Of a stretch of 64,000 nucleotides of DNA, positions 20,455-43,073 are shown piece after piece. Origin of the DNA: Erigeron canadensis (Eukaryota; Streptophyta; Magnoliopsida; Asterales; Asteraceae); the NCBI RefSeq assembly GCF_010389155.1, contig NC_057763.1, positions 6,944,649-7,008,648 on the forward strand, read 5' to 3'. Each line of letters starts with the position of its first letter. The first letter of the stretch is position 1. The translations under genes were made by a program, and so were the position numbers. Below the pieces are notes generated by a model. It made no database searches, had not been told where the DNA came from, and worked only from the letters and a program-made list of their open reading frames with translations.

Positions 20455-20720
20455 TGTGAGTCCCAACTATTTCTAGATGGATACTGAAGACACCTCTATG
20501 TCAATGTTGAGATTTCTATGCAATACGTTCACTGTATCTGGACGTGACCAGTGACAGTGAACAGTATACCAGGTTAACTGGATGAATACTTATTAAGGTG
20601 ACAACAATAAGTAAGTAAATACAATGCAATAATATAAAGTACAAGAATGTAAATAACGGTGAGACAATATGTATTTTTCAAGTGTATTTTATTTATGGCA
20701 TAAACAAAATACAAGGTTGT
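20455..20720 (-). repeat. Inner part of a split 5' LTR
   Basis: This is the LTR end (CTCACA on the minus strand) of the methionine-primed element. It continues after two nested insertions at 36238-36254 and 40211-40905, giving about 970 bases when the insertions and duplicated target bases are discounted. The Athila target duplication GTTGT ends it at 20716-20720. Confidence 0.75.
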
Positions 20721-22416
20721 TGATGTGCCAAATCGAGCTTTAAATTTATAAACTAAAACTACCAAAGAACTCGCTATTACGCACTCATGGGCAGTGGACC
20801 CGATCGTTTGTAATATAGTTAAGAGGTAAGTCTGAGTTCGTTCTCAGGGACTGTGATATGATTAGTTGCTTGCTAAATGGTTTGGAAAACGGGTGTTGCT
20901 TCGAAATTCCTTTTTGACAATTAAATAAATTGGTTTGTAAAATGATTGCGTAAATTTAAAAGAAAAATTCAGACAATATAATTAAAAGTCATCCACCTTG
21001 ACTTCCCTTGACTTCAAATGTGATTGCATTTGATAAAGAACAAATTCTCTAGAGTTTAAAAGATAATCGTGACAAGATTAAACTTCTCACGTGGTACCAC
21101 CAACCGTGAACAAATTATCAAATCACCTGACTACTAGTCGAATTACCCAAGCTGGTACCACCAAAACCAAGACAATTCTTCTAACAATTAGTTTTATTGA
21201 CTATCAAATTATCAATTGAACCTATGTGACAATAACATGGTACCACCAACCGATATCAATCACGTTGACAAAATTAATCTTTTCTTAAAATGATATTCAC
21301 TATCATACCATGAACTAGTGATAATTACTTATAGACAAGTAACCGTTTTAAAATCACATACACATTCAACTGGTGCCACCAACGAAGAATCATATGCAAC
21401 CAATATCGAAATTAATTAAATGAAAAGAATTAAAATCATCAAGATCACGGAACAACGATAATGAAATAAACCCTTTTGAATTAAAAATATAGCAATCACA
21501 TTATCCGTCTAGTTTCATCAAGGTGGATGATTAAACAGTTAGCCACTCATGATCAATTAACACTAATCAATAAAATATAAAAGAAACATGATGTACCAAT
21601 TGTTTGAAGAAAATAAATTGCAAGACGAAAAGTAGATACGATCTAGATGGGTGCCCGTAATATCTTCGATGAGTCCGCCTAAGTGAAACATTTGATTGGA
21701 GAAGGAAGAATCCTGATAGAGCAGCTCCTAGAAAGAGTTTGGATACCTTGAAATTCGTGCCTAGGGTTTATATTTATACCCCTTCAAAATCTGATGCAGA
21801 AACAAGTCAGGATGTGTTCTCCCGTGCATCCACTGCGGCGCAGTGGGTCTTGACTTCTCCCCACTGCGGCGCAGTGAGGTATTGGTCGATTTGACTTCGG
21901 CTGACTGCGGCGCAGTGGCTTATTGACCACCACTGCGGCGCAGTATGAATCCACGACCCCTTTTCATCTTTACTTGACTGCGGCGCAGTCAACTCCTAGC
22001 CATCCCCACTGCGGCGAAGTGGGGATTTGTCCATAAAATTCCGTGGATCAGGACTGCGGCGCAGTGGGCTTGTGCATCCCCACTGCGGCGCAGTCAAGAG
22101 CTTGTATAGAACCAACTTGTTTTGGTCTCGATTACTTGCAAGCTATGCCGTCTCGTCTATTCAAATCAACTATCATCAACATAACGTACTTTCTGGCCAA
22201 TAATCACCTGAAAATGTACCAAATGGACGCGCAACCTGTTTAGAGCCTGAAAACACTAACAAACACCATAATTTAAGAAAACATATAGTAGAATGGCCAA
22301 TAGTAGAATGGCCAATAATGCATACAAATCCCCCCAAATGCATACAAAAACGACTTAAAACATATAGTAGAATGGCCAATAATGATGTGGGTAATGGGTA
22401 TAAATTAGTCACATCA
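20721..22416 (-). repeat. Athila 3' LTR
   Basis: 1696 bases. It differs from the 5' LTR by a short partial duplication near its right end (about 22258-22330, where AGAATGGCCAATA and AAATGCATACAAA recur) plus point changes. It has a TATA-like GGTATAAATA (minus, 21771-21780) and an array of eight palindromes at 21832-22094. Confidence 0.93.
21832..22094. repeat. Array of 8 palindromes ACTGCGGCGCAGT in the 3' LTR
   Basis: Copies start at 21832, 21863, 21904, 21932, 21977, 22008 (GCGAAGT variant), 22053 and 22082, so spacing is 28-45 bases. Each is ACTGCG-G-CGCAGT, with flanks that usually extend the pairing (CCCC/GGGG-like, TG/CA). The array begins about 50 bases upstream of the TATA-like box on the minus strand. 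Confidence 0.95.
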
Positions 22417-22432
22417 AATCCCCCCACACTTG
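22417..22432 (-). promoter_or_regulatory. Athila polypurine tract
   Basis: On the minus strand CAAGTGTGGGGGGATT directly precedes the 3' LTR start TGATGTG. Confidence 0.85.
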
Positions 22433-24737
22433 AGCATTGCTTGTCCTCAAGCAAATCCAGAATTTAAGAAAAAGTAATCCTTGACAACCAAACTATCAAA
22501 CACATGACAAGTATCAAAAAGAAGCAACACCAAGCATGTCAAATGACAGAAAATAGGTGAAGCAGTTTTAATCTTAAATAAACTCGAAATGTTTGACAAT
22601 ACCTGAACAATCCGCAAGCCACGATAATCAACTAAGCATAAATGAAAACAAACGATCCTATCAATATCATTCTACTCCAACAAACTTACTTTTGGGGTCG
22701 AATATATGAAGAATCACTCATAGCTCAGTTGTGATGTATATTCTTTTACCATAGGCTTGAACCAGGATCGTCACTCCACCATTAAGGCTCAAGGATCAAG
22801 TACATTGTCAAAATAGGCATTAAGGGTTGGTGTATAGTTAAACTAAGACTATGTATATGAATATGTAAAATGGAATTTAGGGATAAAGGTTGATGATAAT
22901 CGTGAAAAAAATGAAAAAGGATATAACGTATATGTTAAGTGTACAAAATAGTTTAATACAAACCCATACCATTGATTGCCAACAAACCACCAACCCAAAG
23001 CTGCCATCCCGCGAACACAACCCCAAATTAGCCAAGCAAAACCCGACACCATTGTGGTGTATCAACATCAAACAACTTCAATCCACTAAGTCTTCCATAA
23101 ATATACAACAAATCTTCTAAACATATAAAAAAAATCGAGAAATACTTACTAGTAGCCCAAGTTCTTTTTTTTTTTTTTTATCTTTCCTGTTTTTCAATCT
23201 TCTTCCCTTTTTATTCTTTTTGAACTACTTTTACTCTACTAGCAAGCACCCTCTTACAGTGATGAATTATGTCCAATTACTTCACATTTTTCGTTTAAAC
23301 AATCCAAGATATCTTCAATAACTCGACCAAATGACATATCCTTATAGACAAGAATAACCTTCTAGACAATTCATTGAAGCTCTCCCAAACTACCCAAACA
23401 AACCAATGACAATCAATGATCCTCCATTAGACTATCGGTATAGTGAGGTATAGTTTACAAGTATAAATGGGAATTTACAATGGAGTTGTTAAGTTACAAG
23501 GATGTGTAAGTGTGTAAATGTACAAAGAAAAACGAAAAATTGTATGTATATGTGTATAAGGTTGTATAAGGGTATGGATATACAAAAGAAAATTGAAAAG
23601 AAGGAAAGAAAAAGTATAGGTCAAACCTAAAATGCCAATTTGTCATCCAATGTACTCGTCACGATCACCAGGCCAAGTTCTAGAATCAACACATCACCGG
23701 TATACTCTTATCAAGAAAAGAACCCGAAAATGGCTTAGAAATACCTCAAACACGCACATCTTAGTGCAGGGCATCAAAATGAAAACCCTTACCCCTGAAT
23801 TAATCCAAGAGCCTAAGCGAGGGACGTATTTACGAAGCAAACAAACCAAAACCGTCACCTGACACACTATATATGAAATGATGAAATCTCACAATTGGGT
23901 GTTTTGGATATATATGAGTATGCAAGTAATGTTATCAATCCCGAAGGACTAGCCAAATAACCGTTCAGGACACACTTCGCCAATTAAAAATTTTTGTCAA
24001 GGAAACAGTTTGTAGTAAAATTGCTTATTAAGTAATCAGTTAAGTGTCAAAAGCAATTTACCACAAGGACAAGTTCAACTGAAGTTTAAAAATTAATATC
24101 AACTTCTATTATCCCGTCAAGTTGATAGTACCAGTTTCAAACATGCACATCACAGTTAAGAGTTCAAAAGAGAGACTCAAACCCCTAGATGGAATCCAAA
24201 GGCCTACGAGAGGGACATATCAACAAAACTAATAGAAATCTGAGTGACAAAGCAACAAAAGTGACATACCCGGTAGCTTAAACCTATTTGCCACCCCCCC
24301 CCCTCACTTAAGATGGACAATGCCCCCAATGTCCATATTTGGTCAAACAAAGGTAAATAGGGGTAAGTGACATAGAAAAATAAAAGCACATACCGGAATG
24401 AGGACACATTTCGTTTTGAATCAAATTATCGACCCCGTGTTACAAATGGCACTTCCGAAATAGGAAGGATACTTTGGTTGGCGGGATAAACAACTTGTGC
24501 CAAAACGGAAGGTGCGAGAGTAGTGTGTGACATAGAAATACAAATAAGGTGCAGAACTTACTGCCAGCATATGCACACCATAACAATCAATAATATCGCC
24601 ATAGAAAATAGATGGGAAGGAAATCCAAAGGGTTCCCCCCACACTTGAATTGCACTACAGCTATCAACTACCTGCTCACTTTGCATCAGAAAACTCATCA
24701 AAATATCAAGCATCCAATTATTATACCGTTATTCAAA
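22433..24737 (-). other. Athila 3' untranslated region
   Basis: About 2.3 kb between the third gene's stop and the polypurine tract, without a supported frame on either strand. It is AT-rich with short polypurine and polypyrimidine runs. TTGAGGACAAGCAATGC lies just inside the polypurine tract on the minus strand, and the related element at 37817 has the corresponding TTGAGGACAAGTAAAGC. ACTTACTGCCAGCATATGCACA, shared with 39659-39680, shows this region is conserved between the two elements. Confidence 0.65.
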
Positions 24738-24766
24738 TCAACCAAAAGAAAAAGAAAAACAACCAC

Positions 24767-26406
24767 TGATGTGCAAAATCGAGCTTTAAATTTATAAACT
24801 AAAACTACCAAAGAACTCACTACTATGCACTCACAGGCAGTGGACCCGATCGTTTGTAATATAGTTAAGAGGTAAGTCTGAGTTCGTTCTCAGGGACTGT
24901 GATATGATTAGTTGCTTGCTAAATGGTTTGGAAAACAGGTGTTGCTTCGAAATTCCCCTTTGACAATTAAATAAATTGGTTTGCAAAATGATTGCATGAA
25001 TTTAAAAGACAAGTTCAGACAATATAATTAGAAGTCATCCACCTTGACTTCCTTTGACTTCAAATGTGATTGCATTTGATGAAGAACAAATTCTCTAGAG
25101 TTTAAAAGATAATCGTGACAAGATTAAACTTCTCACGTGGTACCACCAACCGTGAACAAATTATCAAATCACCTGACTACTAGTCGAATTACCCAAGCCG
25201 GTACCACCAAAACCAAGACAATTCTTCTAGCAATCAGTTTTATTGACTATCAAATTATCAATTGAACCTATGTGACAATAACGTGGTACCACCAACCGAT
25301 ATCAATCACGTTGACAAAATTAATCTTTTCTTAAAATGATATTCACTATCATACCATGAACTAGTGATAATTACTTATAGACAAGTAACCGTTTTAAAAT
25401 CACATACACATTCAACTGGTACCACCAACGAAGAATCATATGCAACCAATATCGAAATTAATTAAATGAAAAGAATTAAAATCATCAAGATCACGGAACA
25501 ACGATAATGAAATAAACCCTTTTGAATTAAAAATATAGCAATCACATTATCCGTCTAGTTTCATCAAGGTGGATGATTAAACAGTTAGCCACACATGATC
25601 AATTCACAATAATCAATAAAATAGAAAAGAAACATGATGTACCAATTGTTTGAAGAAAATAAATTGCAAGACGAAAAGTAGATACGATCTAGATGGGTGC
25701 CCGTAATATCTTCGATGAGTCCGCCTAAGTGAAACATTTGATTGGAGAAGGAAGAATCCTGATAGAGCAGTTCCTAGAAAGAGTTTGGATACCTTGAAAT
25801 TCGTGCCTAGGGTTTATATTTATACCCCTTCAAACTGATGCAGAAACAAGTCAGGATGTGTTCTCCCGTGCACCCACTGCGGCGTAGTGGGGTTGAGCCT
25901 TCCCTCACTGCGACGCAGTGAGGTGATCTTGACTTTGACCTTCTTGTGACTGCGGCGCAGTGGCTTGTGTGGCCACCACTGCGGCGCAGTGTGAATCCAC
26001 GGCCCCTTTTCATCTTAACTTGACTACGGCGCAGTCAACTCCTAGCCATCCCCACTGCGGCGCAGTGAGGTTTTGTCCATAAAATTCCGTGGATCAGGAC
26101 TGTGGCGCAGTAGGCTCGTGCATCCCCACTGCGGCGCAGTCAAGAGCTTGTATAGAACCAACTTGTTTTAGTCTCGATTACTTGCTAAGCTCTGCCGTCT
26201 TGTTCATTCAAATCAACTATCATCAACATAACGTACTTTCTGGCCAATAATCACCTGAAAATGTACCAAATGGACGCGCAACCTGTTTAGAGCCTGAAAA
26301 TACTAACAAACACCATAAACGCGCCAAATGCATACAAAAACGACTTAAAACATATAGTAAAATGGCCAATAATGATGTGGGTAATGGGTATAAATTAGTC
26401 ACATCA
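24767..26406 (-). mobile_element. Solo LTR of the same Athila family, nested in the larger copy
   Basis: 1640 bases starting TGATGTGCAAAATC and ending GTCACATCA, flanked by the 5-base duplication ACCAC at 24762-24766 and 26407-26411. No internal region is attached, so it is the product of LTR-LTR recombination after a separate insertion. It has a TATA-like box (minus, about 25817-25826) and its own palindrome array. Confidence 0.93.
25876..26140. repeat. Palindrome array in the solo LTR
   Basis: Eight copies at spacings like those of the other LTRs. Several have single changes (GGCGTAGT, TGCGACGC, CTACGGCG, CTGTGGCG) that break the pairing, more than in the outer LTRs. Most look like C-to-T or G-to-A changes at CG or CHG sites, as methylated DNA decays. 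Confidence 0.93.
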
Positions 26407-28183
26407 ACCACAACAATGTTTCATCACCCCGTAGGGTGGATACAAACCAACCAAACGAAAATTAAAAAGGAGGTTACCGTAATCGAAGAAAGAACCAACC
26501 ACCTGCTCAGCAAACGTCAGCTCAGAAGCTCCGGTCTGACTCACGTCCATACCTGCATAAGTACCTGTATAAGAACCAAAACGAACTGGCATATCCGGTC
26601 CCAAGGTACCTGGATCGTGACTGGGAGGCTCCTCAACCACATGCTCGGGAGGAAAGTAGAAACCTCCACCAACTCGCTGATGTGGGATAAACATGGCGGG
26701 AGGACGATAATCTGGAAGATCCATGGGTGGGCTAAAATCCTGCCCTCTCAACTGCGCCTCCCACATTGGTAACGGCGCAAATCATATACGACTCTCCCAA
26801 GTCCAGAACCCATCATAGTCATATCCCCACCAACCTGCTCCCTAAAACTATCCATACGACCGTGAAAAGCCTGCTGATCAGCGTACATCCTCTCTACCAC
26901 AGACTGAAGAGACGTAAAATCAATACCTACTGGAGCCCGCCTCCTAGGCTGCTCCTGTGGAGCATCCCCCATCTCAACATCCTCAGCTCCCTCCATAACC
27001 GGAGGCGGTGCAACAAACCCAGTATCATCCAGCAGCCTAGAGTTCTCCGTCTGCGTCATCTTCTTCACAATTTTGGCCCTCACCAACTCGGCCTCAGTCA
27101 AAGTCTCCTGAAAGATAGGGGGCGAAAGATCGGTCTGGCACTCATCAGTGTCAAAAATGCCCATGCGCCAATAGATCATAGTAACAAAGTACCCCGAAAC
27201 CAGCTCCCAGTCAGAGTGGTTCCACATCCTATCTAACACAACAATGGGGGCCAAAGCAAATCTCCTAGGCGCCCCTCAGCAAACAACTTCATCAGCCAGA
27301 GATCAGTCTGGTACGCCTTGTCCCAGTGAGTGGACCGCTGTACCAGAAACCTGACAATCATGCGATGAAGCATCCTCAATCGCACACTTCTGATCTTAGA
27401 AACACTGCCTGACCCCCCAGACGGCCAAGCTTCTCCACCAGTAATCCGAGTCCAGTACTGAGGAATGGACTCACCATCAAAGGCCTGCTTAACATATAGG
27501 CCCTGTCTCAACAAACCCCGAAACTTGTTGCTCCTCAACTGGTCCAGGGTGTACATCCCAATATAATAGCCAAACTAGGCAATAGATATCTTCCTCCCAA
27601 CACCCCCACATTGGAAGGTCACATAGCGCTCCTCAAATATATCCTTCACCTTATTCAACTCCTTCGTCACCTTCAGAGTTGAATAGAACTCCAAACACAA
27701 CTCCCTATACACAGGCTCCTGGTTGTTGAACACGTTGTGCCACATATCACTCACAACCAACCTATCCCCGACCTGAGCCTCTATCCTAAACTACCCGTTA
27801 ATGTCAGCTTGAATGCCGAAATGCTGGGTGGCAGTGGGAGCAAGATATCTAGGTGGACAGACCACCTTCTTGTGGATGGAATACAACTCATTGAGAAAGT
27901 TGTTCTTGTGGGGTTGTTTAACCCTGTTAAACTCCAACCACGTATGCTTCTCATTCATCTGCCCTGGCCAAAATTTGAGTGTTGGCGCTTCTACTGCCTC
28001 CCGAGAAGCTTTGGCTTGTTTCTGGGCCGACCCGCTTCCTTGGCCCTCCTCGATTTGCTTCCTCTTGTCAGTTCCTGAAGCATCCTACAAGCACAAATCA
28101 TAAGACAAATAAACATGTTAAACTTGGAATACAAACCAGGAACCGTATTAGAATCAAAGAAAATTCATGCAGGAATGTGCCCC

Positions 28184-28379
28184 ACTGCGGCGCAGTGGAC
28201 ATCCATACCCCCTCACTGCGGCGCAGTGAGGCTAAGTCTCCAGTTGGCCGAGGATTACCACTGCGGCGCAGTGGTCTGAGGCAACCCTCACTGCGGCGCA
28301 GTGGGGTTCCGAACACGTGGGGGTCACGAGCTAAGGACTGCGGCGCAGTGGATCAAACCCACCACCACTGCGGCGCATT
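28184..28379. repeat. Internal palindrome array 1 (6 copies), inside the intron of the third gene
   Basis: Six ACTGCGGCGCAGT copies (the last ends GCATT) between 28184 and 28379. Flanks include CCTC/GAGG and CCAC/GTGG pairs that extend the hairpin. The array lies wholly within the intron 28085-28721. Confidence 0.93.
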
Positions 28380-28960
28380 CACTTGAAGTTCTGGGCAGGT
28401 TCTTTTTGTTCATCATGAAATTCCAGAAAAAGGGAGCAATATTCCAACTAAATATCAATCTTTCAACAATTTATAACTACAACAACGTCCATTAACCTCC
28501 CCCACACTTGTTCATCAAAAAGCCCCAATTTTTTTTAAAACCCTAGGTTTGATTTAGACTCAAATCCGGATGAACAAGTGTTAGACTCGTGAAATTGAAC
28601 ACTACATTATCATCCACACCCCTTAATTAACAAAACCCACCAAACAATTCAACAATTACACCCTAAAAATCAAGAAATTAAAATAAAAAGATCAAAAGGA
28701 GAATAAGCAAGAAAAACTTACATTCTTTCCCATGGTAGTGATGGATAGTTGATAATCTAAGAAGAGAAAGAAAAAAGAATGCAAGAATTTGGTGGATAAG
28801 GGGAAATTTTCGGATTCAAGGGTGTTCTTGGGGAGGGGTTCGGTTTTTGCCTTAGAGAGAAAAAGGGAAAAAGTTTAGATTTGAATATATGGTTAAAACA
28901 TCCCCTACTTTCCTTTTTTAGTTAAACACCCGCTCCCCCTCTTGACCAGTCCACACGCCT

Positions 28961-29152
28961 ACTGCGGTGCAGTGGGCTAAGGCTTTCCTCACTGCGGCGC
29001 AGTGAGGCCTTGAGCAATTCATGCCGAGCATTTGGACTGCGGCGCAGTCCTTCCCTCACACCCCCACTGCGGCGCAGTGGGGTGATGGTCAATAAAGGCC
29101 GTGGAAACTGACTGCGGCGCAGTCGAGTTTACTACCCCCACTGCGGCGCAGT
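28961..29152. repeat. Internal palindrome array 2 (6 copies), upstream of the third gene
   Basis: Six copies between 28961 and 29152 (the first reads ACTGCGGTGCAGT), about 230-420 bases upstream of the minus-strand ATG at 28733. Flanks again pair (GG/CC, CCTC/GAGG, CCCC/GGGG). Confidence 0.93.
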
Positions 29153-29359
29153 GGAGGAATTTTTCAAAAAAATTTGTTTTTCGGTTTTAAACATAAACTT
29201 ACCTCAATCGCTTCACACCACACTTGAACCTGCACATTCTTGACAAAACAAATTAAACCTATCTAACGAAATTAAAAGCAATTTGACAAAACAAAATCAA
29301 ACACGGGTTGCCTCCCGAGAAGCGCTTAATTTATTTACGAGTCGTGAGCTAGACTCGAT

Positions 29360-32300
29360 CACCATTTCAAGTTTGTGAATCAAAAATGGGGATTTCTTCA
29401 ACCATCCCCTCCTTCTGTTCTTCTTCCAAATACAATTTGAGCCTATGTCCATTGACAATGAAAGACCCATTCCATCCCTTTTAAACAATTCGACATAACC
29501 TCCCGGATACACATGTTTAATTACAAAAGGACCTATCCATCTAGAAGTTAATTTCGGTTGTTTGATTTTAAACTTTGACAAGAACAACAAAACTTTTGCA
29601 CCAACCTTAAATTCCTTCCTACGGATCCTTTTATCATGGTAAATCTTGGTCTTTTCTTTGTAAAGTCAGGAATTCTCATAAGCTCCCAATCTAAGCTCAT
29701 CGAGCTCATGGAGTTGCAACAACCTAAGTTTACCGGCCTCCATCATGTCTAGATTCAAATTTCTCAAAGCCCAATACGCCTTATGCTCTAATTCAATCGG
29801 TAAATGACAATTCTTACCATAGAGCAACTTATATGGCGTCGTGTCAATAGGCGTCTTAAAAGCGGTCCTAAATGCCCACAAGGCGTCATCTAACTTTTTT
29901 GACCAAACCTTGGGGTTATCCCCGACCGTTTTTTCCAAAATTCTTTTCAAAGCCCTGTTGGTGTTTTCCACTTGACCATTGGTCTATGGGTGATAAGAAG
30001 TTGAAAAGTAATGATGAACACCATACTTCTTAAGAACCTTATCCAGTTGATGATTAGCAAAATGTGTTCCACGATCACTAATTAAGGCTCTAGGGCAACC
30101 AAACCTACTAAACAACTGTTTCAAGAACTCAATGACTACCCTCGCGTCATTTTTAGGTAAAGCCTTGGCTTCGGCCCACTTGGACACGTAATCAACAACA
30201 ACTAGGATGTACTGAGACTTGTTAGACGGTGGGAATGGTCCCATGAAGTCTATGCCCGCAATATCGAAAACCTCACATACCTGAATCCCTTGCTGTGGCA
30301 TTTCATCCCTTTTTGTGATGCTTCCTTGGCGTTGGCAAATGTCACAGGTTTCAACCAACGTTTGGGCCTCTTTGAAGATATTCAGCCAATAGAAACCTGC
30401 ATCAAAAACCTTTCTACCTGTAACTGACGGACCATAGTGACCTCCGGTTGTCCCGTAATGGCAAGCATCCACAATCTCCCGAGTTTCAGCTCCCGCAACA
30501 CATCTCCTGACCATACCATCTGCACAAATTCGAAACAGATATGGGTTATCCCAGTAATAATGCTTAGCATCCGATATGAGCTTCTTCTTCTGTTGACACG
30601 AGAAATCATTTGGTATTTCACCTGCAACCAAATAATTAGCAATGTCAGCAAACCAAGGACCTTCATCAGAACTAGAAATGACATTCAAATATTCATCGGG
30701 GAAGTGATCCTTAATCTCCCCATCCTGAAGCTCCTCCCGGTTTGGGTCCTCCAACCGGCTCAAATGGTCAGCTGCTAAGTTCTCGGCACCTTTCTTATCC
30801 TTGATTTCGATATCAAATTCTTGCAACAATAGAATCCATTGAATCAGTCTAGGCTTTGCATCTTGCTTAGAAAACAAATGCTTCAAAGCAGAGTGGTCAG
30901 TGAAAACAACAGTTTTACTTAGTACTAGATATGACCGAAACTTATCAAATGCAAAGACTAATGCAAGTAACTCCTTCTCTATAGTAGTGTAATTTTGCTG
31001 GGCGGGATTCAAAGTTTTACTAGCATAGTAAATTGGCTTGAAATACTTATCATCCCTTTGCCCAAGCACCACACCTACAACATAGTCACTTGCATCACAC
31101 ATCAGTTCAAACGGCAAATTCCAATCCGGTCCAACCATAATGGGAGAATTGGTTAACTTATCCTTCAATACCTGAAAAGCACTTAAACAAGATTCATCAA
31201 AAACAAAAGGGACGTCCTTCTCCAACAAGTAGGTCATCGGACGAGTGATCTTAGAGAAATCCTTAATGAATCTCCGGTAGAAACCGGCATGGCCAAGGAA
31301 ACTACGTACCCCTTTCACATTGGAAGGTGGGGGTAACTTGGCGATCACATCAATCTTGGCCCTATCAACTTCTATTCCGGCTCTAGACACCTTATGACCA
31401 GGACAATTCCCTCGGTCACCATGAAGTGACACTTCTCCCAATTCAAAACTAGACGAGCCTTTTCACACCTAGTCAACATCTTATCTAGGTTATGCAAACA
31501 TGACGTAAAAGAATCCCCAAAGACCGAGAAATCATCCATGAAAACCTCCATTGAGGTTTCAAGCATGTCCTGGAAAATAGCTATCATGCACCTTTGGAAG
31601 GTGCCCGGGGCATTACACAAGCCAAAAGGCATTCGCCGGTAAACAAATGTACCAAATGGGCATGTAAAAGTGGTCTTTTCTTGGTCTTTCGGGTCGATGG
31701 GTATTTGGAAATACCCGGAGAACCCATCCAAGAAACAAAAATATTCATTTCCGGCAAGTCTTTCCAACATTTGATCAATAAATGGGAGGGGAAAATGATC
31801 CTTACGGGTGGCATCATTCAACTTACGGTAATCTACGCAAACCCGCCATCTCGTGACAGTCCTAGTGGCCAAAAGTTCATTATTTTCATTTTCAATGACC
31901 GTCATGCCCCCTTTTTGGGAACACAGTGGACGGGACTTACCCAAGAACTATCAGCTATAGGAAAAATGATCCCTACATCTAAAAGCTTAATCACTTCCTT
32001 CTTAACCACCTCCTTCATATTTGGATTAAGCCTCCTTTGTCTCTGGACAACGGGCTTAGCATCATCAACAAAATCTATCTTATGAATGTCGGTGGTTTTC
32101 CAAGCAAAAGCCCGCTTATGAGCTTTAAGCACGGCTAAAAGGAGATTTTTCTCGTCACTCGAAAGTGCGGATGAGATAACAACGGGTAAAGAGGATTTAC
32201 CTGCCAAGTAAGCATACTCCAAGTGGGCAGGCAATGGCTTGAGTTCCAGATCAGTAGGGGGTACATCAACCGAATTTGGTACCCTTGAGCTTCCATCAGC

Positions 32301-32552
32301 AACCACCTTTTCGAAGTTCTCATTTTCTGGAGGTGTCTCATCCATATCAAGCGCCATCACCTCTGCAAACAAATCTTCATCACCAATATCTCCACCTCCT
32401 AAGCAAGCGAACTCTTCATCAACTTCCGTTTCAATGAATTCCTGAAATTCTTGATCCAAAGCATCATCAGTTACATCTATCCTGAAACAAGATTCATCAG
32501 TCGAGTAAGAATGCTTAATAGATTGTAACAAGTTCCTTGATAAACTTCGCAT
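29360..32552 (-). pseudogene. Athila pol: RT, RNase H, integrase; protease missing
   Basis: Minus strand order: pre-RT linker 31944-32552 with acidic stretches; reverse transcriptase 31372-31944 (WRVCVDYRKLNDATRKDHFP, YRRMPFGLCNAPGTFQRC, active site VFMDDFSVFG); RNase H in 29984-31441 (MCDASDYVVGVVLGQRDD, TTIEKELLALVFAF, VVFTDHSALKHL); integrase with the zinc-binding H/C region ending VETCDICQRQG, then IDFMGPFPPSNK and LISDRGTHFAN, then [12 protein letters not shown] after an in-frame TAG at 29981-29983. Another stop is at about 29663 and shifts lie near 31920 and 31410. The domain that should precede the linker, an aspartic protease with D-S/L-G-A, is absent. Non-functional. Confidence 0.92.
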
Positions 32553-34422
32553 AATTCAGCATTCCCTGTATCAAATCAACTAAAGGCACATTAATATGAA
32601 CATTTTTAATCATGTTAACAAATTTATCATATTGTTCCTTCAATTTGGCCTTCCTCAACCGCTGTGGAAATGGAACCTTAGGCTTATATGGCTTAGCCTC
32701 GGGTGTCACCGCCGGTTCCGGTGGGGTAACCGGAGTCTTCACAGTCGGTTGATCTTCCATCACAATCTCCTCATCAACGTCTTCAGCTTCCTCATTTCTT
32801 GTATCCTGCACATCTAAAACAACAACATTAGGATTAGGAGGAGGAGCATAGGATCTACCTGTACGAGTAGTAATGGCCTTCGCCTGCTCATGACGAACAG
32901 GCGGTGGAGTGTACTTTTGACCACTGTTGGACCCTTGGTTCTGCTTCGAATTCTGTTGAGTGTTACTAGGCAAAACACCCTGGGGCCTAGTTAGAGAAGC
33001 CATCCTACTTTCAAGATCTTTAAAGTTAATATCCTGATTTTTGGCATTCATCTCCACCTTGCCATTAATCCTATCTAGCCTCTCACTCAACTCCCTAGTA
33101 TCCTCCCTTATATTCTGGATACTTGTGTTTGTCTCAATCTGATTACTCATCATCTGTTTCATCATCTCTCTCAGCTCGGCATTAGGATCGGTAATAGAAG
33201 AGGAAGAACCTGATCCTTGGCTTTGCTTAGTCTCCTGCTGCTGTGGCTGACTTTGATAGTTGCTCTTTTGCCACCTGTTACCAGAAAAACGAGAAGTATT
33301 AGCAGGAAAAGAAGAGTTATAAGAATTGTTACCTGATGACCGATTCTGAAAACCGGTGTTCCTCTGAAAACCTCCTTGCTGATCCTGAACAAAATTGACA
33401 TCTTCAGGTCCCCGGTTGGGACACTCTTCAGAATAGTGCGTGTCTCCACAATGATCACATCCATCAGCTAGCACCTTCACATCTCACTCTAGATATCCAA
33501 ACCTCGATTCTTGGTTAGCAAACCCCTTATCCATCCTTGCCGATAAAGCCTGAATCTCATCAATTACACTAGAACTATTGCTTCCATCTGCCCTAGCAAC
33601 CTTATTTTGCTTGAATCGGCTCTCATTCTTCATAAACCTCTTATCATCCATGGTCGCATTATCCTTCATTTGGAGTAATCTTGCTAAAACTCCACCAAAA
33701 GCATATCCCATCTCTCTTTTAGATGCCTTGGTCAATCCATCAAAGAACAACTCAACATACTTCTCCTCGGTCAATTCATGACCCGGACAATTCCTCAACA
33801 TTTCTTTAAAGCGGATCCATGCATCTACCACATCTTCCCTATCTTTTTGAATGAAAGACCTAATCAAGTTTTCCAATTGCCTTTGAGTTCAAACCGAGTA
33901 AAACTCACCAATAAACGCTTCCTTGAGTTGATCCCAAGTTGTAATCGAATTCTCGGGAAGATCATTAAACCAATCTTCGGCTTCCCCAGTAAGAGTGATA
34001 GGAAAGGTTTCAAGTTTCACGGCATTCATTTGGTTTTGGCCATATTGGTATAGTCGTGCCACCTTCTCAAACCTCTTCAAGTGCTTATATGGATCCCACT
34101 TCTTCTTTCCATCAAACTTTTGCTCCTCGATGCTCTTTAGATGATTCGGTTTCAAATTAAAGTTTTGATCAACCGCCGGTGTTCTAATGGTGGAACCATG
34201 AGCCAAAGGAATATTGCGGGCTCGGTCTCGATACTTGATGTCATTCGGATCTCTTGGTGGATTTTCACCCATCTCTTCTTTTACAAGTGCAAGGTCAAAG
34301 AATTCCTCTAGATAGAAGCCTTCTTCGTCCCAATCTGGTGGTGCCGTGTAGTTGATCCTACGTCTAGGTGGAGTTTTTAGTGGACTAAAAAGAGGTCTCC
34401 CCGAAGAACGCAAAATCATCAA
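32515..34422 (-). pseudogene. Athila gag, one frame broken by two stops
   Basis: It starts at 34422 (MMILRSSGRPLFSPLKTPPR). The capsid-like region has NHLKSIEEQKFDGKKKWDPY, LTGEAEDWFNDLP and DQLKEAFIGEFYSV. A TGA at 33886-33888 and another at 33481-33483 interrupt the same frame, which continues as QLENLIRSFIQKDREDVVDA and then CDHCGDTHYSEECPNRG, a CCHC-type knuckle. A basic, proline-rich tail follows and it stops at 32515 just after MLNYAKFIKELV, where Athila proteins normally run on into protease. It would coat genomic RNA in an intact element. Confidence 0.9.
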
Positions 34423-34575
34423 CTATTACAGTATCCTGCAAAACACAACTAACACCACACGTCAAATGCACCTGTGATAATTCAATAAAACAAGTCTAAA
34501 CTAATAAAGCAAATAACTTCCTCACCGGTGAGGAAGGGTCAAACCACTAAATAAACAACTAAATCGGCTCACAAT

Positions 34576-34592
34576 CCTCGGCAGCGGCGCCA
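34576..34592 (-). promoter_or_regulatory. Athila primer binding site (Asp tRNA type)
   Basis: On the minus strand TGGCGCCGCTGCCGAGG follows the 5' LTR after a few bases. It resembles the complement of the 3' end of tRNA-Asp (TGGCGCCGTTGCCGGGG type) with two or three changes, the usual primer in Athila elements. Confidence 0.85.
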
Positions 34593-35645
34593 AAAACTTG
34601 ATGTGCTAAATCGAGCTTTAAATTTATAAACTAAAACTACCAAAGAACTCGCTACTACGCACTCACGGGCAGTGGACCCAATCGTTTGTAATATAGTTAA
34701 GAGGTAAGTCTGAGTTCGTTCTCAGGGACTGTGATATGATTAGTTGCTTGTTAAATGGTTTGGAAAACGGGTGTTGCTTCGAAATTCCTTTTTGACAATT
34801 AAATAAATTGGTTTGTAAAATGATTGCATAAATTTAAAAGAAAAATTCAGACAATATAATTAAAAGTCATCCACCTTGACTTCCCTTGACTTCAAATGTG
34901 ATTGCATTTGATAAAGAACAAATTCTCTAGAGTTTAAAAGATAATCGTGACAAGATTAAGCCACTCACGTGGTACCACCAACCATGAACAAATTATCGAA
35001 TCACCTAACTACTAGTCGAATTACTCAAGCCGGTACCACCAAAACCAAGACAATTCTTCTAACAATCAGTTTTATTGACTATCAAATTATCAATTGAACC
35101 TATGTGACAATAACATGGTACCACCAACCGATATCAATCACGTTGACAAAATTAATCTTTTCTTAAAATGATATTCACTATCATACCATGAACTAGTGAT
35201 AATTACTTATAGACAAGTAACCGTTTTAAAATCACATACACATTCAACTGGTACCACCAACGAATAATCATATGCAACCAATATCGAAATTAATTAAATG
35301 AAAAGAATTAAAATCATCAAGATCACGGAACAACGATAATGAAATAAACCCTTTTGAATTAAAAATATAGCAATCACATTATCCGTCTAGTTTCATCAAG
35401 GTGGATGATTAAACAGTTAGCCACACATGATCAATTCACAATAATCAATAAAATAGAAAAGAAACATGATGTACCAATTGTTTGAAGAAAATAAATTGCA
35501 AGACGAAAAGTAGATACGATCTAGATGGGTGCCCGTAATATCTTCGATGAGTCCGCCTAAGTGAAACACTTGATTGGAGAAGGAAGAATCCTGATAGAGC
35601 ATCTCCTAGAAATAGTTTGGATACCTAGTTTACGAGTTAGGGTTT

Positions 35646-35655
35646 CCTATTTATA
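35646..35655 (-). promoter_or_regulatory. TATA box of the Athila 5' LTR
   Basis: TATAAATAGG on the minus strand, a perfect plant TATA box, about 54 bases downstream of the palindrome array. Transcription would be expected to start about 30 bases further on, near 35615. Confidence 0.75.
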
Positions 35656-35708
35656 CCCCTTCAAAATTTGATGCAGAAACAAGTCAGGATCTGTTCTCCC
35701 GTGCATCC

Positions 35709-35971
35709 ACTGCGGCGCAGTGGGTCTTGACTTCTCCCCACTGCGCGCAGTGAGGTATTGGTCGATTTGACTTCGGCTGACTGCGGCGCAGTGGCTTATG
35801 TGACCACCACTGCGGCGCAGTATGAATCCATGACCCCTTTTCATCTTTACTTGACTGCGGCGCAGTCAACTCCTAGCCATCCCCACTGCGGCGCAGTGGG
35901 GATTTGTCCATAAAATTCCGTGGATCAGGACTGCGGCGCAGTGGGCTTGTGCATCCCCACTGCGGCGCAGT
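35709..35971. repeat. Palindrome array (8 copies) in the 5' LTR U3
   Basis: Eight copies of ACTGCGGCGCAGT in 263 bases (one shortened to CTGCGCGCAG), same spacing as in 21832-22094. The array occupies the U3 promoter-proximal zone. Confidence 0.95.
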
Positions 35972-36237
35972 CAAGAGCTTGTATGGAACCAACTTGTTTT
36001 GGTCTCAATTACTTGCTAAGCTCTGCCGTCTCGTCCATTCAAATCAACTCTCATCAACATAACGTACTTTCTGGCCAATAATCACCCGAAAATGTACCAA
36101 ATGGACGCGCAACCTGTTTAGAGCATGAAAACACTAACAAACACCATAAACGCGCTAAATGCATATAAAAACGACTTAAAACATATAGTAGAAGGGCCAA
36201 TAATGATGTGGGTAATGGGTATAAATTAGTCACATCA

Positions 36238-36254
36238 GTTGTTGTGGAACCAAG
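36238..36254 (-). repeat. Middle sliver of the split LTR
   Basis: Seventeen bases between the two Athila insertions. They begin with the target duplication GTTGT of the left element and end with CCAAG, the target duplication of the right one. The sliver proves two independent insertions into the same LTR 12 bases apart. Confidence 0.85.
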
Positions 36255-37816
36255 TGATGTGTTTAGTCTTAAATTTATAAACACGAAATACCTAGCTACT
36301 AACTACTACACACTTGCGGGCAGTGAACCCGTTCGTATGCAATATAGTTGACTTGGTAAACCGAGGTCGAACACAAGGACTTATTAAGCAAATGTTACAA
36401 TAAAGTGATTCAGATTAAAAGGGGGTTTTGTGACCGAATTGCCACGTTGCAAAAGTTAGTAAGAAAAGTCAGTAATCCCGTAGGATTAATCACAAGAGAA
36501 TATTTGTTGTTGAATTTCGAACAATAATTTAAAAGGACACCCACTTGGATCAACTCACATGCCAATCATCGGGTCTAAACATTACTTGCATTTGTTGAAC
36601 TACTCAAAAGATAGACAAGACGAACTTCCATTATACTTGACATTTTAATTGCTCCATATATAGTTATCGCTTCCGCATTTAATTTCTATTCAAAACAATT
36701 AAGCCTTTAGATCCTGAGTTGATTTTTACGATTTAACCTGTAAAAGCTTTCTTCCGAACTACTTATTCACCTAATCAGATTCCTCTATCATAAGTGTTTA
36801 CACATTCAAAATGAGTTTAATTGTTTAAAATCTTTATCATTAGTTTCTTCCGAACTCCAACGACTTTAGGCTAATTATAGACCGATCAACCTTTTCATAA
36901 ACCAATTAACAATGACATAGATTTCTTCCGAACTTCTAATTACGATTATCAATCAATAAATATAAAAGATGAAAACAATATTTAAACTCAAATAAATATA
37001 GATCTTCGATTAAACGTAAAAACCTTGTTCAACGTTTGCAAGTAACATTCACAACGACTCTATGACATGTTCACTACCCAAGCGGGTGCAAATAAGATTT
37101 AGCCACTCATAATAACCGAGGAAACACAAATAATATTAAAAGAAATGATATTGTACCGATAGTATTGATGAATTCGGAAAGAAATAATGAATCCTTGAAT
37201 AGAATTTGATATTCTTGAACAAATAGATGATAGAAATCGACCTACAAGAGCTTTCCAGTTTGTTCTTCGCATTTCTAGGGTTTTCTAAGTGGTAAAAAAG
37301 AGATAATTTCCCGTCCTTAATGAATAAAAAAGAGTATATATATGAATTCAGCAACTAACGGCCGTTAGGGAGGTGTAACGGCCGTTACACGGGCTAACTG
37401 TCCAGATTTTGCAACTTTAGTCCTTCAGACTAATGTCCGTCAAGATATTGTTACACCATCAGTCCTTTCAGCTACTAACGGCCATTAATCAGATGCTTAA
37501 CGCCAGTTAGCGTGGACATGTAATTCCAACTTCTTATTAACGGTAGTTAAGATTTGTTAATGGGAGTTAAGTGCTGAAAGTCATGGATTCTTCATTCAAA
37601 CATCCTTTTTCCGTTATGTCTTTCACCCGTAACTTGTCCGCACATCATTTCATCATCTCTTATGTCATTTTTTTTTGCCATTTTCATCCATCTTGCATGT
37701 CATAAACCTGAAACCACTAACGCATACCATAAAGCATCGAATATACATGCAAATGACTAACAATTACGTATTACCTAAAAATCATGAGGGAAATAAGTAT
37801 ATATTTAGTCACATCA
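36255..37816 (-). repeat. 3' LTR of the second Athila-like element
   Basis: 1562 bases, TGATGTGTTTAGTC...AGTCACATCA. On the minus strand a TATA run (GAATTCATATATATAC, about 37335-37350) has an array of TTAACGGCCGTTAA-like palindromes immediately upstream (37355-37570). The R/U5 side has TTTCTTCCGAACT repeated about every 70-140 bases. Confidence 0.88.
37355..37570. repeat. Array of six TAACGGCCGTTA-type palindromes in LTR U3
   Basis: Units at 37355 (CTAACGGCCGTTAG), 37375 (GTAACGGCCGTTAC), 37476 (TAACGGCCATTA), 37498 (TAACGCCAGTTA), 37537 (TTAACGGTAGTTAA) and 37557 (TTAATGGGAGTTAA). The first two are perfect with paired outer bases; the others are decayed. Position relative to TATA matches the other family's array. 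Confidence 0.85.
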
Positions 37817-40175
37817 AATTCCCCCATACTTAAGCTTTACTTGTCCTCAAGCAATTCCAAGTTGAATAACACAAATTACCTTAGTACATAATGGAACCAC
37901 ATTTCAGTAATCAAAAAGAAGCTCAACCATAATAAAAAATGAGAATAGATGGTTATGCAGTTTTAATCTTAAATGAAAACCGGAATGTTTGACAATAATT
38001 GACTGATATACAAGCCTTAATAACACGACTAAGCACAAATGAAACGAAAAAATGATATCTCGCCTATCCTACTCCAACTAACTTACTCTTGGGGTTTGAA
38101 TATTTGAATAATCACTCAATGCCAAGTCGTGATGCATACTCTTTTAACCATAGGCTTGTACTAGGTTCGTTCCTTCATCGCCAAGGCGCTAGCGCCCTAT
38201 AACGTCGTCTAGTCCACAAACAATCCCATGTCATTAGTTGCCAACGGTCTAAATTCCAAGAAGTCATCCCGACAATATCCCCCAATAGAACGATCCTAAA
38301 AACAACACCATTGTGGTGTATGACAATCAAACAACTTCTTCCGCCTAACTTCCCATGTTGGCTTAAACAAACATGCCAACTTAAACACAATAACCAAATA
38401 ATACAATTTAAGAACATTTCGTTGTTATTACGATGTACCAACTTCAAATATGATTTAACAAAAAGGAGAAATACCAACTGACAGCCCAAACTCTTTTTTC
38501 ATTTCTTCTATATTTTTTTTCTTTTTCTATTTTTATATTCTTTTATTATTTTTTTTGTGAGCTACTTTTACTCTGACTAATTGGTATTCAAGTGACAAAT
38601 CATTTAATATATATATATATATGCTAAAATGAACAATTCGGAATCGATTCAAGATCATGACGAAATCAAACTACCCCCATTGGATTAGAATATCCCAACC
38701 CGACATAACAAAACCAAGCCCAAATCATCTACTAGCAAAGGCAACCAATGACCCACCAGGACTTCGACTATCGATATGGCTAGGAAAGGTGTATATTTGG
38801 GTGGATTTAATAACAAAGAACATGCTAATGACAACATGTTTTCTATTGTTTCTTGCACTAAAAGCGAGTGCAACATAAGGGTTTTAAACAGGTGATTCAC
38901 TAACCAGTGTAGTTAGCTACTTAGCACATTACAAAACATGCACATATAACAAATTTTACGAAACAAGGGGTGAACATACAAAAAGCAAAGGTTTAAATCC
39001 TAATTTGCCTCTTCAACATATAGAAAAATCATGGAACGATCAACCAGGACAAGTTCTAGAATCAACACTATCACCAGCACACTGTTAGCAAATGAAATAA
39101 CTCGGAAATAGAAAATCAACCTTAAACTTACACATCATAGTTCAGAGCACTAAAAAAGACCCTTACTTTCGGATAAATCCAAAAGCCTATGAGAGAGACA
39201 AATTTACAAGGCTAATAATTCCAAAATCGTAACACCTATCATACTAGCAATGAATCAATAATCTTACAATTTGGGTGTTTTGATGCTTTGAGCGTGCTAG
39301 CAATGTTATTAATCTAGAAAGGATGTCACGTTAATCAGTCAAAACACATTACACATATTAAATTTTTGTACCAAGGGTGTAGTTACATTGCTCATTAATA
39401 TATATAATTAGGTGACAAAAGCAATTAACTACAAGGACAAGCATGCAAAAGTTTAAAATTCTTCTAAAACTACCCGACTTTTTCCTATTTACCACCCCCC
39501 ACACTTGAGTTGGACAATGCCCTCAATTTCCAATGAACTAAGGCAAACTATAGGAAATAGGGGAAAGTAAACAAAAAGAAAATCAAGAACAAGAAAAACT
39601 TGTCGGGTATAACGGTGTTCCATGCTTGAATGATGCCATCAAGAATATTGTGCTGAACTTACTGCCAGCATATGCACATGACAATCAACTTGCTATCAAC
39701 ATGAACACACAGATCAACGCAAACAGGAATACCAAACAAATTGCATAACCATAACCATCATCAAAAAGTTTATTGAAAAACGCAAACAAACAGAAAAATG
39801 CAAAACTAACATATAAATAACAAAATAGAACACACGGGTTGCCTCTTGAGAAGCGCTTAATTTATTAACGAGTCTTTAGTTAGACTCGAATCCCAAAGAA
39901 TTACCATGTTGGGGTTTCTAACGCCCCCACACTTAAAGTGTTGGGCGATCTACCCTTAAATAGTGAAAAAACAGTCCACTTTCACCTTTGTCAGACTCCA
40001 ACTGTTAACTTCACCAAGACATAAAAAGTCTGGTGGCCTACACGAGTAAGGTGAAAAATAAGTGAACTTAAACTTTAACATTACCCATTCTTTAAAATTC
40101 ACCTTTTTAAAATCTCCATTCACATAATCTATCACATCCATTTTTAAATCCATGAAATCTACCCAGTTCATCAAA
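37817..40175 (-). other. Internal remnant of the second Athila-like element
   Basis: AATTCCCCCATACTTAAG at 37817 is the complement of its polypurine tract. The rest is non-coding 3' region, with TATAT and T-rich runs near 38500-38620, and the post-integrase piece near 39840. A 72-codon minus frame at 39956-40174 abuts the LTR remnant but matches nothing I recognise. Confidence 0.6.
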
Positions 40176-40210
40176 TCATGAGGGAAATAAGTATATATTT
40201 AGTCATATCA

Positions 40211-42108: not shown

Positions 42109-42985
42109 CTGTGTTCTTGAGATTAATTTATAAAAGAGAAAAAGAAATTAGAAGATAAACTTGGATATTTTCAAATCACCCCAAATATGGGGAGAAAATT
42201 TTTTTAAATAAAAACAACTAAATTATCCCTTCAAATCATATCATTTCATTTCCCTTCTATCCTAAAAATTAAACTCAAGAACACAACTAATTTTATAATC
42301 CATTTTATTCCTTTCTTTTCTTTTCTTAAAAAAAAAAAAATTAACAATACAGTGTTAACTAGTAAATCTCACATGATTTGCTTTCACAGGGGAAGGGTCA
42401 TTCCCATGAATGTTTTGATAACAAAGAAAGAAAGGGGCCTTAAAAATGTTCATTTAGCTTGTGTTCTCGACTTTATATGTAAAGGAAGGGGAAAAAAGAG
42501 AAAATAGATAAATGGAAGAGAAGGAGTGGATTTTCCTTCCTTTCAAATCATCCCAAAAGTGGAAAAAAAATATCTTACACAAAATCTATAAAATTCTCTT
42601 TCCAAATCTTTTCCCTTCTTTTCTCTTCTTCTTTTAAATAAAACTCAAGAACCCAAATATTTTTAAAATCCTTTACAATCTTTTTCTTTCCCTTTAAAAC
42701 AAAACTCAAAGAACATACCCTTATAAGCCTGTGTTCTCGAGTTTATATGTAAAGAAAGGGGAAATAAGAGAAGAAAGATGAATGGAAGAGAAGTGGTGGA
42801 GTTTCCTTCCTTCCAAATCATCCCAAAAGTGGGAGGAAAATATCTTTAACAAATTCTATAGAATTCTCCTTCCAAATCTTATTCCTTCTTTTCTCTTATT
42901 CCCTTAAATAAAACTCAACAACCCAAATATTTTTATAATCCTTTACGATCTTTTCCTTTCTTTTTAAAAAAAAAAACTCAAACAA
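42108..42985. repeat. Three adjacent MITEs of one family
   Basis: Units at about 42108-42295, 42458-42720 and 42726-42985. Each begins TGTGTTCTCGAGTTTATA-like and ends in its inverted form (AAACTCAAGAACA-like), with shared GGAAGAGAAG.GGTGGA, CAAATCATCCCAAAAGTGG and TTCTCTTCC blocks. The second and third lie only a few bases apart and are most alike. Confidence 0.65.
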
Positions 42986-43073
42986 CATAACCGTTTCTTG
43001 AACACATACTCCCCTAGCCTTTCATTTTTCCCTCTTTCCTTCCGCCGTGGTAATTGATTCATTCACCGCCGTC

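What the first reader, a model, noticed from the sequence alone, without database searches (positions are those of the whole stretch)
35709..35971. Palindrome array ACTGCGGCGCAGT directly upstream of the TATA box in Athila LTRs
Seen: eight copies of a 13-base odd palindrome (ACTGCG-G-CGCAGT) in about 263 bases in each of three LTRs (21832-22094, 25876-26140, 35709-35971), spaced 28-45 bases, all in U3 and ending about 50 bases from TATAAATA. The spacers differ from one another while the palindromes stay the same, so this is not a simple tandem repeat. Flanks extend the pairing in several different ways (CCCC/GGGG, CCTC/GAGG, GG/CC, TG/CA), which looks like compensatory change. Inference: the units are selected as a dimeric protein-binding site or as hairpins, and act as promoter or silencing-control elements.
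Basis: partly seen in the sequence, partly recalled or inferred. Interest (0 to 1): 0.87.

Follow-up and report, generated by a model that had tools for sequence, protein, structure and literature searches.

The report
Palindrome arrays at retrotransposon promoters
A plant retrotransposon carries evenly spaced rows of one 13-letter DNA palindrome beside its main promoter and again beside a predicted second, internal promoter, most likely as docking sites for a paired regulatory protein, an arrangement already described in a different retrotransposon lineage.

Summary
The window holds 36 units of ACTGCGGCGCAGT in five arrays: 28 exact, 7 with one substitution, 1 lacking the centre base. Three arrays (8 units each) lie in LTRs, 51-53 bp upstream of TATAAATA. 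Two more (6 units each) lie inside the element: one between pol and a predicted internal promoter of the env-like gene, one in that gene's predicted intron. In all five, centre spacing alternates about 30/45 bp. Between arrays, spacer interiors are near chance identity, while palindromes differ at 7 of 455 positions and spacer lengths are held. This favours a sequence-specific, spacing-constrained protein-binding module over hairpins selected only for pairing. Flank pairing exceeds shuffles only modestly (p 0.012; 0.058/0.022 stratified), and no unit has two changes. A related neighbouring LTR has another palindrome (TAACGGCCGTTA, 7 units, mostly degenerate) in the same position. Palindromes upstream of the LTR TATA box and of ENV are known as Sirevirus (Ty1/copia) RM boxes; here they sit in a Ty3/gypsy, Athila-like element of a probable Asteraceae host: a new variant of a known kind. 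The family-wide genome test never ran.

The parts
20721..36237 (-). Athila-like LTR retrotransposon, TSD ACAAC at 36238-36242 and 20716-20720; reads right to left; carries a nested solo LTR
   Evidence: LTR pair by self-BLAST; TG..CA ends and matching 5-bp TSD read; gag, RT, RNase H and integrase Pfam hits
34599..36237 (-). 5' LTR
   Evidence: followed by PBS-like TGGCGCCGCTGCCGAGG from 34592 downward
35709..35971 (-). array 1: 8 palindrome units in U3 of the 5' LTR (unit 35740-35751 lacks the centre base)
35648..35655 (-). TATAAATA, 53 bp after the last palindrome
20721..22416 (-). 3' LTR of the same element
   Evidence: preceded by a purine-rich tract (GTGTGGGGGGATT)
21832..22094 (-). array 2: 8 units in U3 of the 3' LTR; TATAAATA 53 bp downstream
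24767..26406 (-). nested solo LTR of the same family, inserted in the env-like region, TSD GTGGT (24762-24766, 26407-26411)
25876..26140 (-). array 3: 8 units in the solo LTR; TATAAATA 51 bp downstream
28961..29152 (-). array 4: 6 units between the pol stop (29297) and the predicted env-like internal promoter
28885..28890 (-). TATA-like ATATAT, 70 bp after array 4, followed by a CT-rich leader (predicted internal promoter)
   Evidence: prediction
28722..28733 (-). predicted env-like exon 1 (ATG at 28733) ending at a GTAAGT donor
   Evidence: prediction read by eye
28085..28721 (-). predicted intron, GT..AG, frame-compatible with the env-like ORF that opens at 28084
   Evidence: prediction read by eye
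28184..28379 (-). array 5: 6 units inside the predicted intron
26407..28084 (-). env-like coding region, broken by stops and frame changes
   Evidence: weak Transposase_32 (PF20167) match of one of five pieces, E 0.1, below cut-off
29297..31947 (-). pol part with RT, RNase H, integrase in Ty3/gypsy order
36255..37816 (-). LTR of a related family (C)
   Evidence: shared 3' end by BLAST; ends and shared start read by eye
37356..37569 (-). family C array: 7 units of TAACGGCCGTTA with at most 3 mismatches (2 exact), centres 20/55/45/22/40/20 bp apart; ATATAT 12 bp downstream
   Evidence: 2000 shuffles of the region: mean 0.16, maximum 3

Best explanation
The array is an upstream activating module built from paired palindromes (two sites about 30 bp apart, pairs repeated about every 75 bp). 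Each palindrome is the target of a sequence-specific, probably dimeric DNA-binding protein, and the 30/45 spacing fixes how neighbouring dimers sit on the DNA. The element uses the module twice: at the LTR promoter (gag-pol RNA) and at a predicted internal promoter of the env-like gene, with a third copy in that gene's predicted intron, perhaps acting as an intronic enhancer. Shown: the arrays, their spacing, their position relative to TATA-like sites and the gene order. Inferred: the internal promoter and intron, protein binding, activation rather than repression, and a host rather than an element-encoded protein. The likely binder is a host transcription factor; GCGGCG inside the palindrome equals the reported AS2/LOB-domain (LBD) site, which is a lead only.
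For: Array 51-53 bp upstream of TATAAATA in 3 of 3 LTRs, and another array 70 bp upstream of a TATA-like site between the pol stop and the env-like ATG. Alternating about 30/45 spacing in 5 of 5 arrays. Spacer interiors near chance identity between units (0.486 against 0.458 shuffled, 45 pairs; 0.526 against 0.520, 21 pairs) but lengths held at 15-18 and 28-34 bp, while units differ at 7 of 455 positions. Solo LTR against 5' LTR: palindromes 3/103 changed, spacers 29/160, Fisher p 0.00016. CpGs in LTR palindromes intact in 47 of 48 copies against 106 of 126 in LTR sequence outside the array, p 0.009. No unit with two changes. The related LTR C has a different palindrome array in the same position. 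Literature: Athila6A of Arabidopsis has an internal ENV ORF promoter and an intron (PMC4977677, passages); Sirevirus palindromes sit upstream of the LTR TATA and of ENV (PMC2829016, passages and sections 9 and 20); LOB domain binds GCGGCG (PMC10118128, passage).
Against: Palindromes are not more conserved than the rest of the LTR between the two insertions (3/103 against 59/1374, p 0.80; for the 3' LTR against the solo LTR 5/104 against 38/1374); the contrast arises because spacers are unusually variable (29/160, p 2e-9), so exchange of array segments could mimic constraint. Untrimmed spacers, which include the flanks, are more alike than shuffled (0.601 against 0.515 and 0.561 against 0.533), so some common descent shows. 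The centre base has the same orientation in 34 of 35 full-length units (one C-to-T), which a symmetric dimer would not require. The intron array has no TATA-like site in the 144 bp after it that were scanned. Only two independent insertions of the family were seen, both in one window. There are no expression, binding or methylation data.
Confidence: 0.55

Rival explanations
1. Structure rather than sequence: transcribed palindromes fold into hairpins that feed Dicer or shape the RNA, so the arrays are silencing triggers or RNA elements, as argued for maize Sireviruses.
For: RNA of arrays 1, 4 and 5 folds far better than shuffles (z -7.4, -5.7, -4.2; 0 of 200 shuffles as good each; arrays 2 and 3 were not folded). 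Flank pairing is above shuffled. In maize, excess small RNAs map to palindrome clusters of Sireviruses (Bousios 2016 as cited in PMC10760457, passages).
Against: Any palindrome folds, so the z-scores follow from the motif itself. No unit has two changes. The 30/45 spacing is not needed for hairpins. In Arabidopsis, DCL3-RdDM targets showed no correlation with palindromes (PMC4977677, passage; stated there as data not shown).
Confidence: 0.15
2. Mutational: a decayed minisatellite of about 75-bp dimers, kept alike by template switching or gene conversion that starts in the palindromes, with no function.
For: The dimeric period is common to all five arrays. Residual spacer likeness: untrimmed spacers exceed shuffled on average, and the first b-a spacers of the LTR and pre-env arrays are alike (0.71 against 0.54, z 4.0). 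LTR differences cluster around the array and the TATA region. In the sister LTRs the array is less changed than the rest (2/262 against 52/1376, p 0.008). Recombination among Athila families is documented in Arabidopsis (PMC2410132, passages).
Against: Exchange should carry spacers along, yet spacer interiors between arrays are near chance identity while spacer lengths persist. Three separate sites in one element keep the same geometry. It does not explain placement upstream of two TATA-like sites, nor a different palindrome in the same position in LTR C.
Confidence: 0.18
3. The palindromes are targets of a protein encoded by the element itself (for example the env-like ORF product) that counters silencing or autoregulates, like VANC proteins of VANDAL transposons, whose short target motifs form arrays in non-coding regions and differ between related families.
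For: Different motif in the same position in related families A and C. An array lies beside the extra ORF's own predicted promoter. CpGs retained in the palindromes. VANC precedent (PMC5735166, passages; PMC10398659, passages).
Against: No DNA-binding domain was recognised in the five pieces of the env-like ORF scanned against Pfam, and the two pieces searched found no homologue. Next to the family C LTR there is no ORF of 150 aa or more up to 43001, so a C-specific protein would have to act in trans.
Confidence: 0.1

Closest known systems
Sirevirus RM boxes (Ty1/copia; PMC2829016)
   Same: Palindromic repeated motif, 8 or more copies, clustered upstream of the LTR TATA box, with further copies upstream of ENV and in two elements at the start of ENV; CpG-bearing region; motif differs between families
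   Different: Here in a Ty3/gypsy element, whereas the paper calls the RM Sirevirus-specific (its comparison was with other Ty1/copia elements); no CGG-CCG inverted core; alternating 30/45 spacing; a TATA-like site and splice donor predicted beside the env array
Athila6A internal ENV promoter and intron (PMC4977677)
   Same: Athila element with an internal promoter for the env-like ORF and an intron
   Different: No palindrome array is mentioned for Athila6A in the passages read; the sequence of that promoter was not seen here
VANDAL/VANC motif arrays (PMC5735166)
   Same: Short motif repeated in non-coding TE DNA, motif differing between related families
   Different: A DNA transposon (recalled); the word palindrome does not occur in that paper's held text; a TE-encoded binder is shown there and unknown here
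MSA elements bound by MYB3R in G2/M promoters (PMC8964727)
   Same: Family C palindrome TAACGGCCGTTA is two inverted AACGG cores; the SCL28 promoter holds four MSA elements in both orientations
   Different: Applies to LTR C only; no binding data

Membership tests
Sirevirus (Ty1/copia) | copia gene order and Sirevirus RT | tested here: not met
   RT, RNase H and integrase lie in Ty3/gypsy order (RT in 31375-31947, then RNase H and integrase in 29987-31462, minus strand)
Sirevirus-type RM box (architecture) | palindromic motif in at least 8 copies clustered upstream of the LTR TATA box | tested here: met
   8 units per LTR, 51-53 bp from TATAAATA
Sirevirus-type RM box (architecture) | extra copies upstream of ENV | tested here: met
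   Array 28961-29152 between pol and the predicted env-like start
Sirevirus-type RM box (architecture) | CGG-CCG inverted core | tested here: not met
   Core is GCG-C-CGC on the coding strand; Tnd-1 of the paper also lacks it
Sirevirus-type RM box (architecture) | CpG island over the cluster | tested here: inconclusive
   Array plus 45 bp each side: G+C 0.54-0.55, CpG observed/expected 0.75-0.83, which passes the usual thresholds (recalled); but the rest of the LTR, at G+C 0.34, has a higher ratio (0.84-0.97)
Athila lineage (Ty3/gypsy, OTA clade) | gypsy gene order without a second RNase H (which marks Tat) | tested here: met
   one RNase H region; no Pfam match in the two pol pieces downstream. 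Absence of a match in broken pieces is weak evidence
Athila lineage (Ty3/gypsy, OTA clade) | tRNA-Asp primer binding site | tested here: inconclusive
   TGGCGCCGCTGCCGAGG from 34592 resembles the tRNA-Asp type as recalled; PMC1142308 gives tRNA-Asp for Diaspora and Calypso (passages), but no tRNA was aligned
Athila lineage (Ty3/gypsy, OTA clade) | extra sense ORF 3' of pol | tested here: met
   Broken env-like ORF 26407-28084; Athila ORF-1 (PF03078) not matched, which PMC6317226 reports for 16% of Athila elements (passage)
Athila lineage (Ty3/gypsy, OTA clade) | place in an RT-RH-INT tree | not tested
   No lineage-labelled reference set was at hand; the listed relatives carry no lineage names
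VANC-type anti-silencing array | binding by an element-encoded protein causing loss of methylation | not testable with these tools
   Needs ChIP, EMSA and bisulfite data

The most novel reading that the evidence does not exclude
Palindrome arrays are a general, convergent two-promoter control module of env-bearing plant retrotransposons: copia Sireviruses and gypsy Athila-like elements both mark the LTR promoter and the env promoter with the same family-specific palindrome, read by a cognate dimeric protein, possibly element-encoded and anti-silencing, with motif and binder turning over together between families (ACTGCGCCGCAGT in A, TAACGGCCGTTA in C).
Probability: 0.15. Interest if true: 0.8.

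Novelty: new variant of a known kind. Interest (0 to 1): 0.52.

Why it matters
If the reading holds, two retrotransposon superfamilies have independently reached the same layout: one palindrome array at the LTR promoter and one at the env-like gene. That would suggest that the env-like gene of plant elements, whose role the Sirevirus paper calls highly controversial, is transcribed and co-regulated with gag-pol. The alternating 30/45 spacing and the swap of palindrome between neighbouring families give a concrete, cheap test (one probe, one pull-down) for which protein reads these arrays and whether it activates or silences.

Tried and rejected
Searches for relatives with arrays elsewhere: the search for related loci with one pol piece in viral contigs gave 18 pattern matches, none confirmed by tblastn; a double-palindrome pattern gave 0 matches in viral contigs and 0 in genome contigs. 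Neither collection is one of plant genomes, so these say little. Two of the env-like pieces gave no homologue (no candidate; 116 candidates, none at E 1e-5 or better).

Rejected: 'simple tandem repeat' (Tandem Repeats Finder at score 50 reports no array there; spacer interiors near chance identity). Rejected: 'chance'. Rejected: 'Sirevirus member' (gene order). Rejected: the palindrome as a shared element of all LTRs in the window; in an unbiased scan for clustered exact palindromes the 300-bp windows with 4 or more all lay on family A arrays, and the family C pair appeared among neighbouring palindromes. A full-text search for the motif found neither 13-mer in any paper; 9 papers held an 11-base core, by title none about transposons. 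No comparison with DAP-seq motif libraries was possible.

Full report
What was checked. The window (64 kb, 36% G+C) holds 35 matches to ACTGCGNCGCAGT with at most two mismatches, against a shuffled mean of 0.49 (maximum 3 in 100 shuffles). With one unit that lacks its centre base (35740-35751) there are 36 units: 28 exact, 7 with one substitution, 1 with a deletion.

The element. Self-comparison finds three LTR copies, 92.5-94.6% identical. Reading their ends shows that 34599-36237 and 20721-22416 share the target duplication ACAAC and are the two LTRs of one element read on the minus strand. 24767-26406 has its own duplication GTGGT and is a solo LTR nested in the first element. Pieces between the LTRs carry gag, RT, RNase H, integrase zinc-binding and integrase core matches, the pol domains in Ty3/gypsy order. 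Of 7982 relatives of one pol piece (7986 candidates scored) the best 120 were shown, 49-77% identical; the named ones are Tanacetum, Helianthus and Smallanthus entries, and the closest, at 77%, is unnamed. The host is therefore probably an Asteraceae species. The Athila assignment rests on gene order, the lack of a second RNase H match, the PBS-like stretch and the extra 3' ORF; no tree was built.

The two arrays outside LTRs. On the coding strand the order after the pol stop (29297) is: array 29152-28961; ATATAT at 28890-28885, 70 bp after the last palindrome; a CT-rich leader; ATG at 28733; a GTAAGT donor four codons later; array 28379-28184; a TTGTAG acceptor ending at 28085; then the env-like frame that opens at 28084. 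So one array stands upstream of a predicted internal promoter and one inside a predicted intron. Promoter and intron are read by eye, but the paper on Athila6A of Arabidopsis describes an ENV ORF promoter and an intron (PMC4977677, passages). The env-like frame is broken by stops and frame changes and was searched only in pieces: one weak match to Transposase_32 in five pieces (E 0.1, below cut-off); no homologues for two pieces.

Geometry. Centre-to-centre spacing on the coding strand is 29-45-31-45-28-41-31 (3' LTR), 29-45-31-45-29-42-31 (solo LTR), 29-45-31-45-29-40.5-30.5 (5' LTR), 29-45-30-45-30 (pre-env) and 30-47-30-45-31 (intron). Every array is thus a row of pairs. In the 5' LTR, pre-env and intron arrays (20 units, 10 pairs) the first unit of a pair has a G-rich right flank in 10 of 10 and a C-rich left flank in 7 of 10; the second unit has varied flanks (counted by eye).

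Constraint. Among those 20 units, spacer interiors (4 bp trimmed at each end) are barely more alike than shuffled: 0.486 against 0.458 (45 pairs, mean z 0.40) and 0.526 against 0.520 (21 pairs, mean z 0.73). Untrimmed spacers, which include the flanks, are more alike: 0.601 against 0.515 (mean z 1.71) and 0.561 against 0.533 (mean z 1.43). A few pairs stand out, the best being the first b-a spacers of the LTR and pre-env arrays (0.71 against 0.54, z 4.0; all). Spacer lengths nevertheless stay at 15-18 bp and 28-34 bp. The 35 full-length units differ from the consensus at 7 of 455 positions: 6 in the arms, 1 at the centre, never two in one unit. Between the solo LTR and the 5' LTR palindromes differ at 3/103, spacers at 29/160 and the rest at 59/1374; palindromes against spacers p 0.00016, spacers against rest p 2e-9, palindromes against rest p 0.80. 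Between the 3' LTR and the solo LTR the figures are 5/104, 28/159 and 38/1374. So palindromes are not more conserved than the LTR as a whole at this short distance; the spacers are more variable. Differences cluster around the array and the TATA region, which suggests exchange of segments. Against expectation for a hot spot, the two sister LTRs differ less in the array (2/262) than elsewhere (52/1376, p 0.008). CpG sites in LTR palindromes are intact in 47 of 48 copies, against 106 of 126 in LTR sequence outside the array (p 0.009; the 5 spacer CpG positions, 10 of 15 copies intact, were left out of that comparison). These sites and copies are not independent.

Flanks. For the 20 non-homologous units the first four flank positions hold 44 Watson-Crick pairs against 33.8 when right flanks are reshuffled (p 0.012); contiguous extension, over up to seven positions, is 35 against 21.7 (p 0.007). 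Shuffling only within the two flank classes gives 44 against 38.1 (p 0.058) and, over four positions, 33 against 23.2 (p 0.022). Taken singly, the pre-env array is significant (p 0.007 for pairs) and the other four are not (p 0.15-0.41). The picture is a fixed 13-bp sequence with weakly dyad flanks.

Structure. As RNA the arrays at 35700-35980, 28950-29160 and 28175-28385 fold with z -7.4, -5.7 and -4.2. This follows from the palindromes themselves and does not discriminate between readings.

Turnover. A related LTR next door (36255-37816; shared 3' end by BLAST; shared first bases by eye) carries TAACGGCCGTTA in the same position: 7 units with at most 3 mismatches in 214 bp, against a mean of 0.16 and a maximum of 3 in 2000 shuffles of the region; centres 20, 55, 45, 22, 40, 20 bp apart; ATATAT 12 bp downstream. 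Two of the 7 are exact and 5 are degenerate (3 to 5 of 6 dyad pairs kept), so this array is decayed. Its half-site AACGG is the MSA core bound by MYB3R (PMC8964727, passages). The family A palindrome contains GCGGCG, reported as the AS2/LOB-domain site (PMC10118128, passage). Both are leads, not tests.

Mechanism. The best reading is a spacing-constrained upstream module read by a dimeric, sequence-specific protein at two promoters of one element. Rivals are hairpin or small-RNA function, a functionless decayed minisatellite, and an element-encoded reader of the VANC kind (PMC5735166, passages).

Known context. Sireviruses (Ty1/copia) carry palindromic RM boxes upstream of the LTR TATA box and, in env-bearing members with RMs, upstream of ENV, called there a Sirevirus-specific feature (comparison with other Ty1/copia elements; PMC2829016, section 9 read). 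The authors took this as support for an internal env promoter that they could not conclusively identify (section 20 read). The 2016 maize paper on these palindromes is not held. In the searches made (open-licence papers only) I saw no report of such arrays in Athila or other Ty3/gypsy elements, but most listed papers were seen as listings only. Papers on Athila or its kin that I searched for the word: PMC1142308, PMC6317226, PMC3276544 and PMC2410132 hold 'palindrom' nowhere; in PMC11963269 (Retand) the occurrence shown was a reference title.

Limits. One window, two independent insertions of the family; own-genome search unavailable throughout; no expression or methylation data.

Noticed in passing
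21092-21382, 25138-25428, 34970-35260, 17598-17886: A second repeated motif downstream of the TATA box in family A LTRs: TGGTACCACCAA (core palindrome GTGGTACCAC in some copies), four copies per LTR at matching positions, some with one mismatch; three copies (one with two mismatches) in the partial related LTR at 17211-18176.
   Followed up: partly
36748, 36844, 36922: The family C LTR has a different repeated motif, TTTCTTCCGAACT, three exact copies in the part of the LTR downstream of its TATA-like site.
   Followed up: partly
35537-35737: 5' and 3' LTR of one insertion differ in a block around and just downstream of the TATA box, where the 3' LTR matches the solo LTR instead, suggesting exchange between family members.
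   Followed up: partly
40171-40210: A fragment like the start of the family C LTR (GACTAAATATATACTTATTTCCCTCATGATT) recurs here, suggesting an internally deleted or fragmented family C element (by eye).
   Followed up: no
42456-42989: A 270-bp unit in two tandem copies, 87% matching, just before an ORF at 43002.
   Followed up: no
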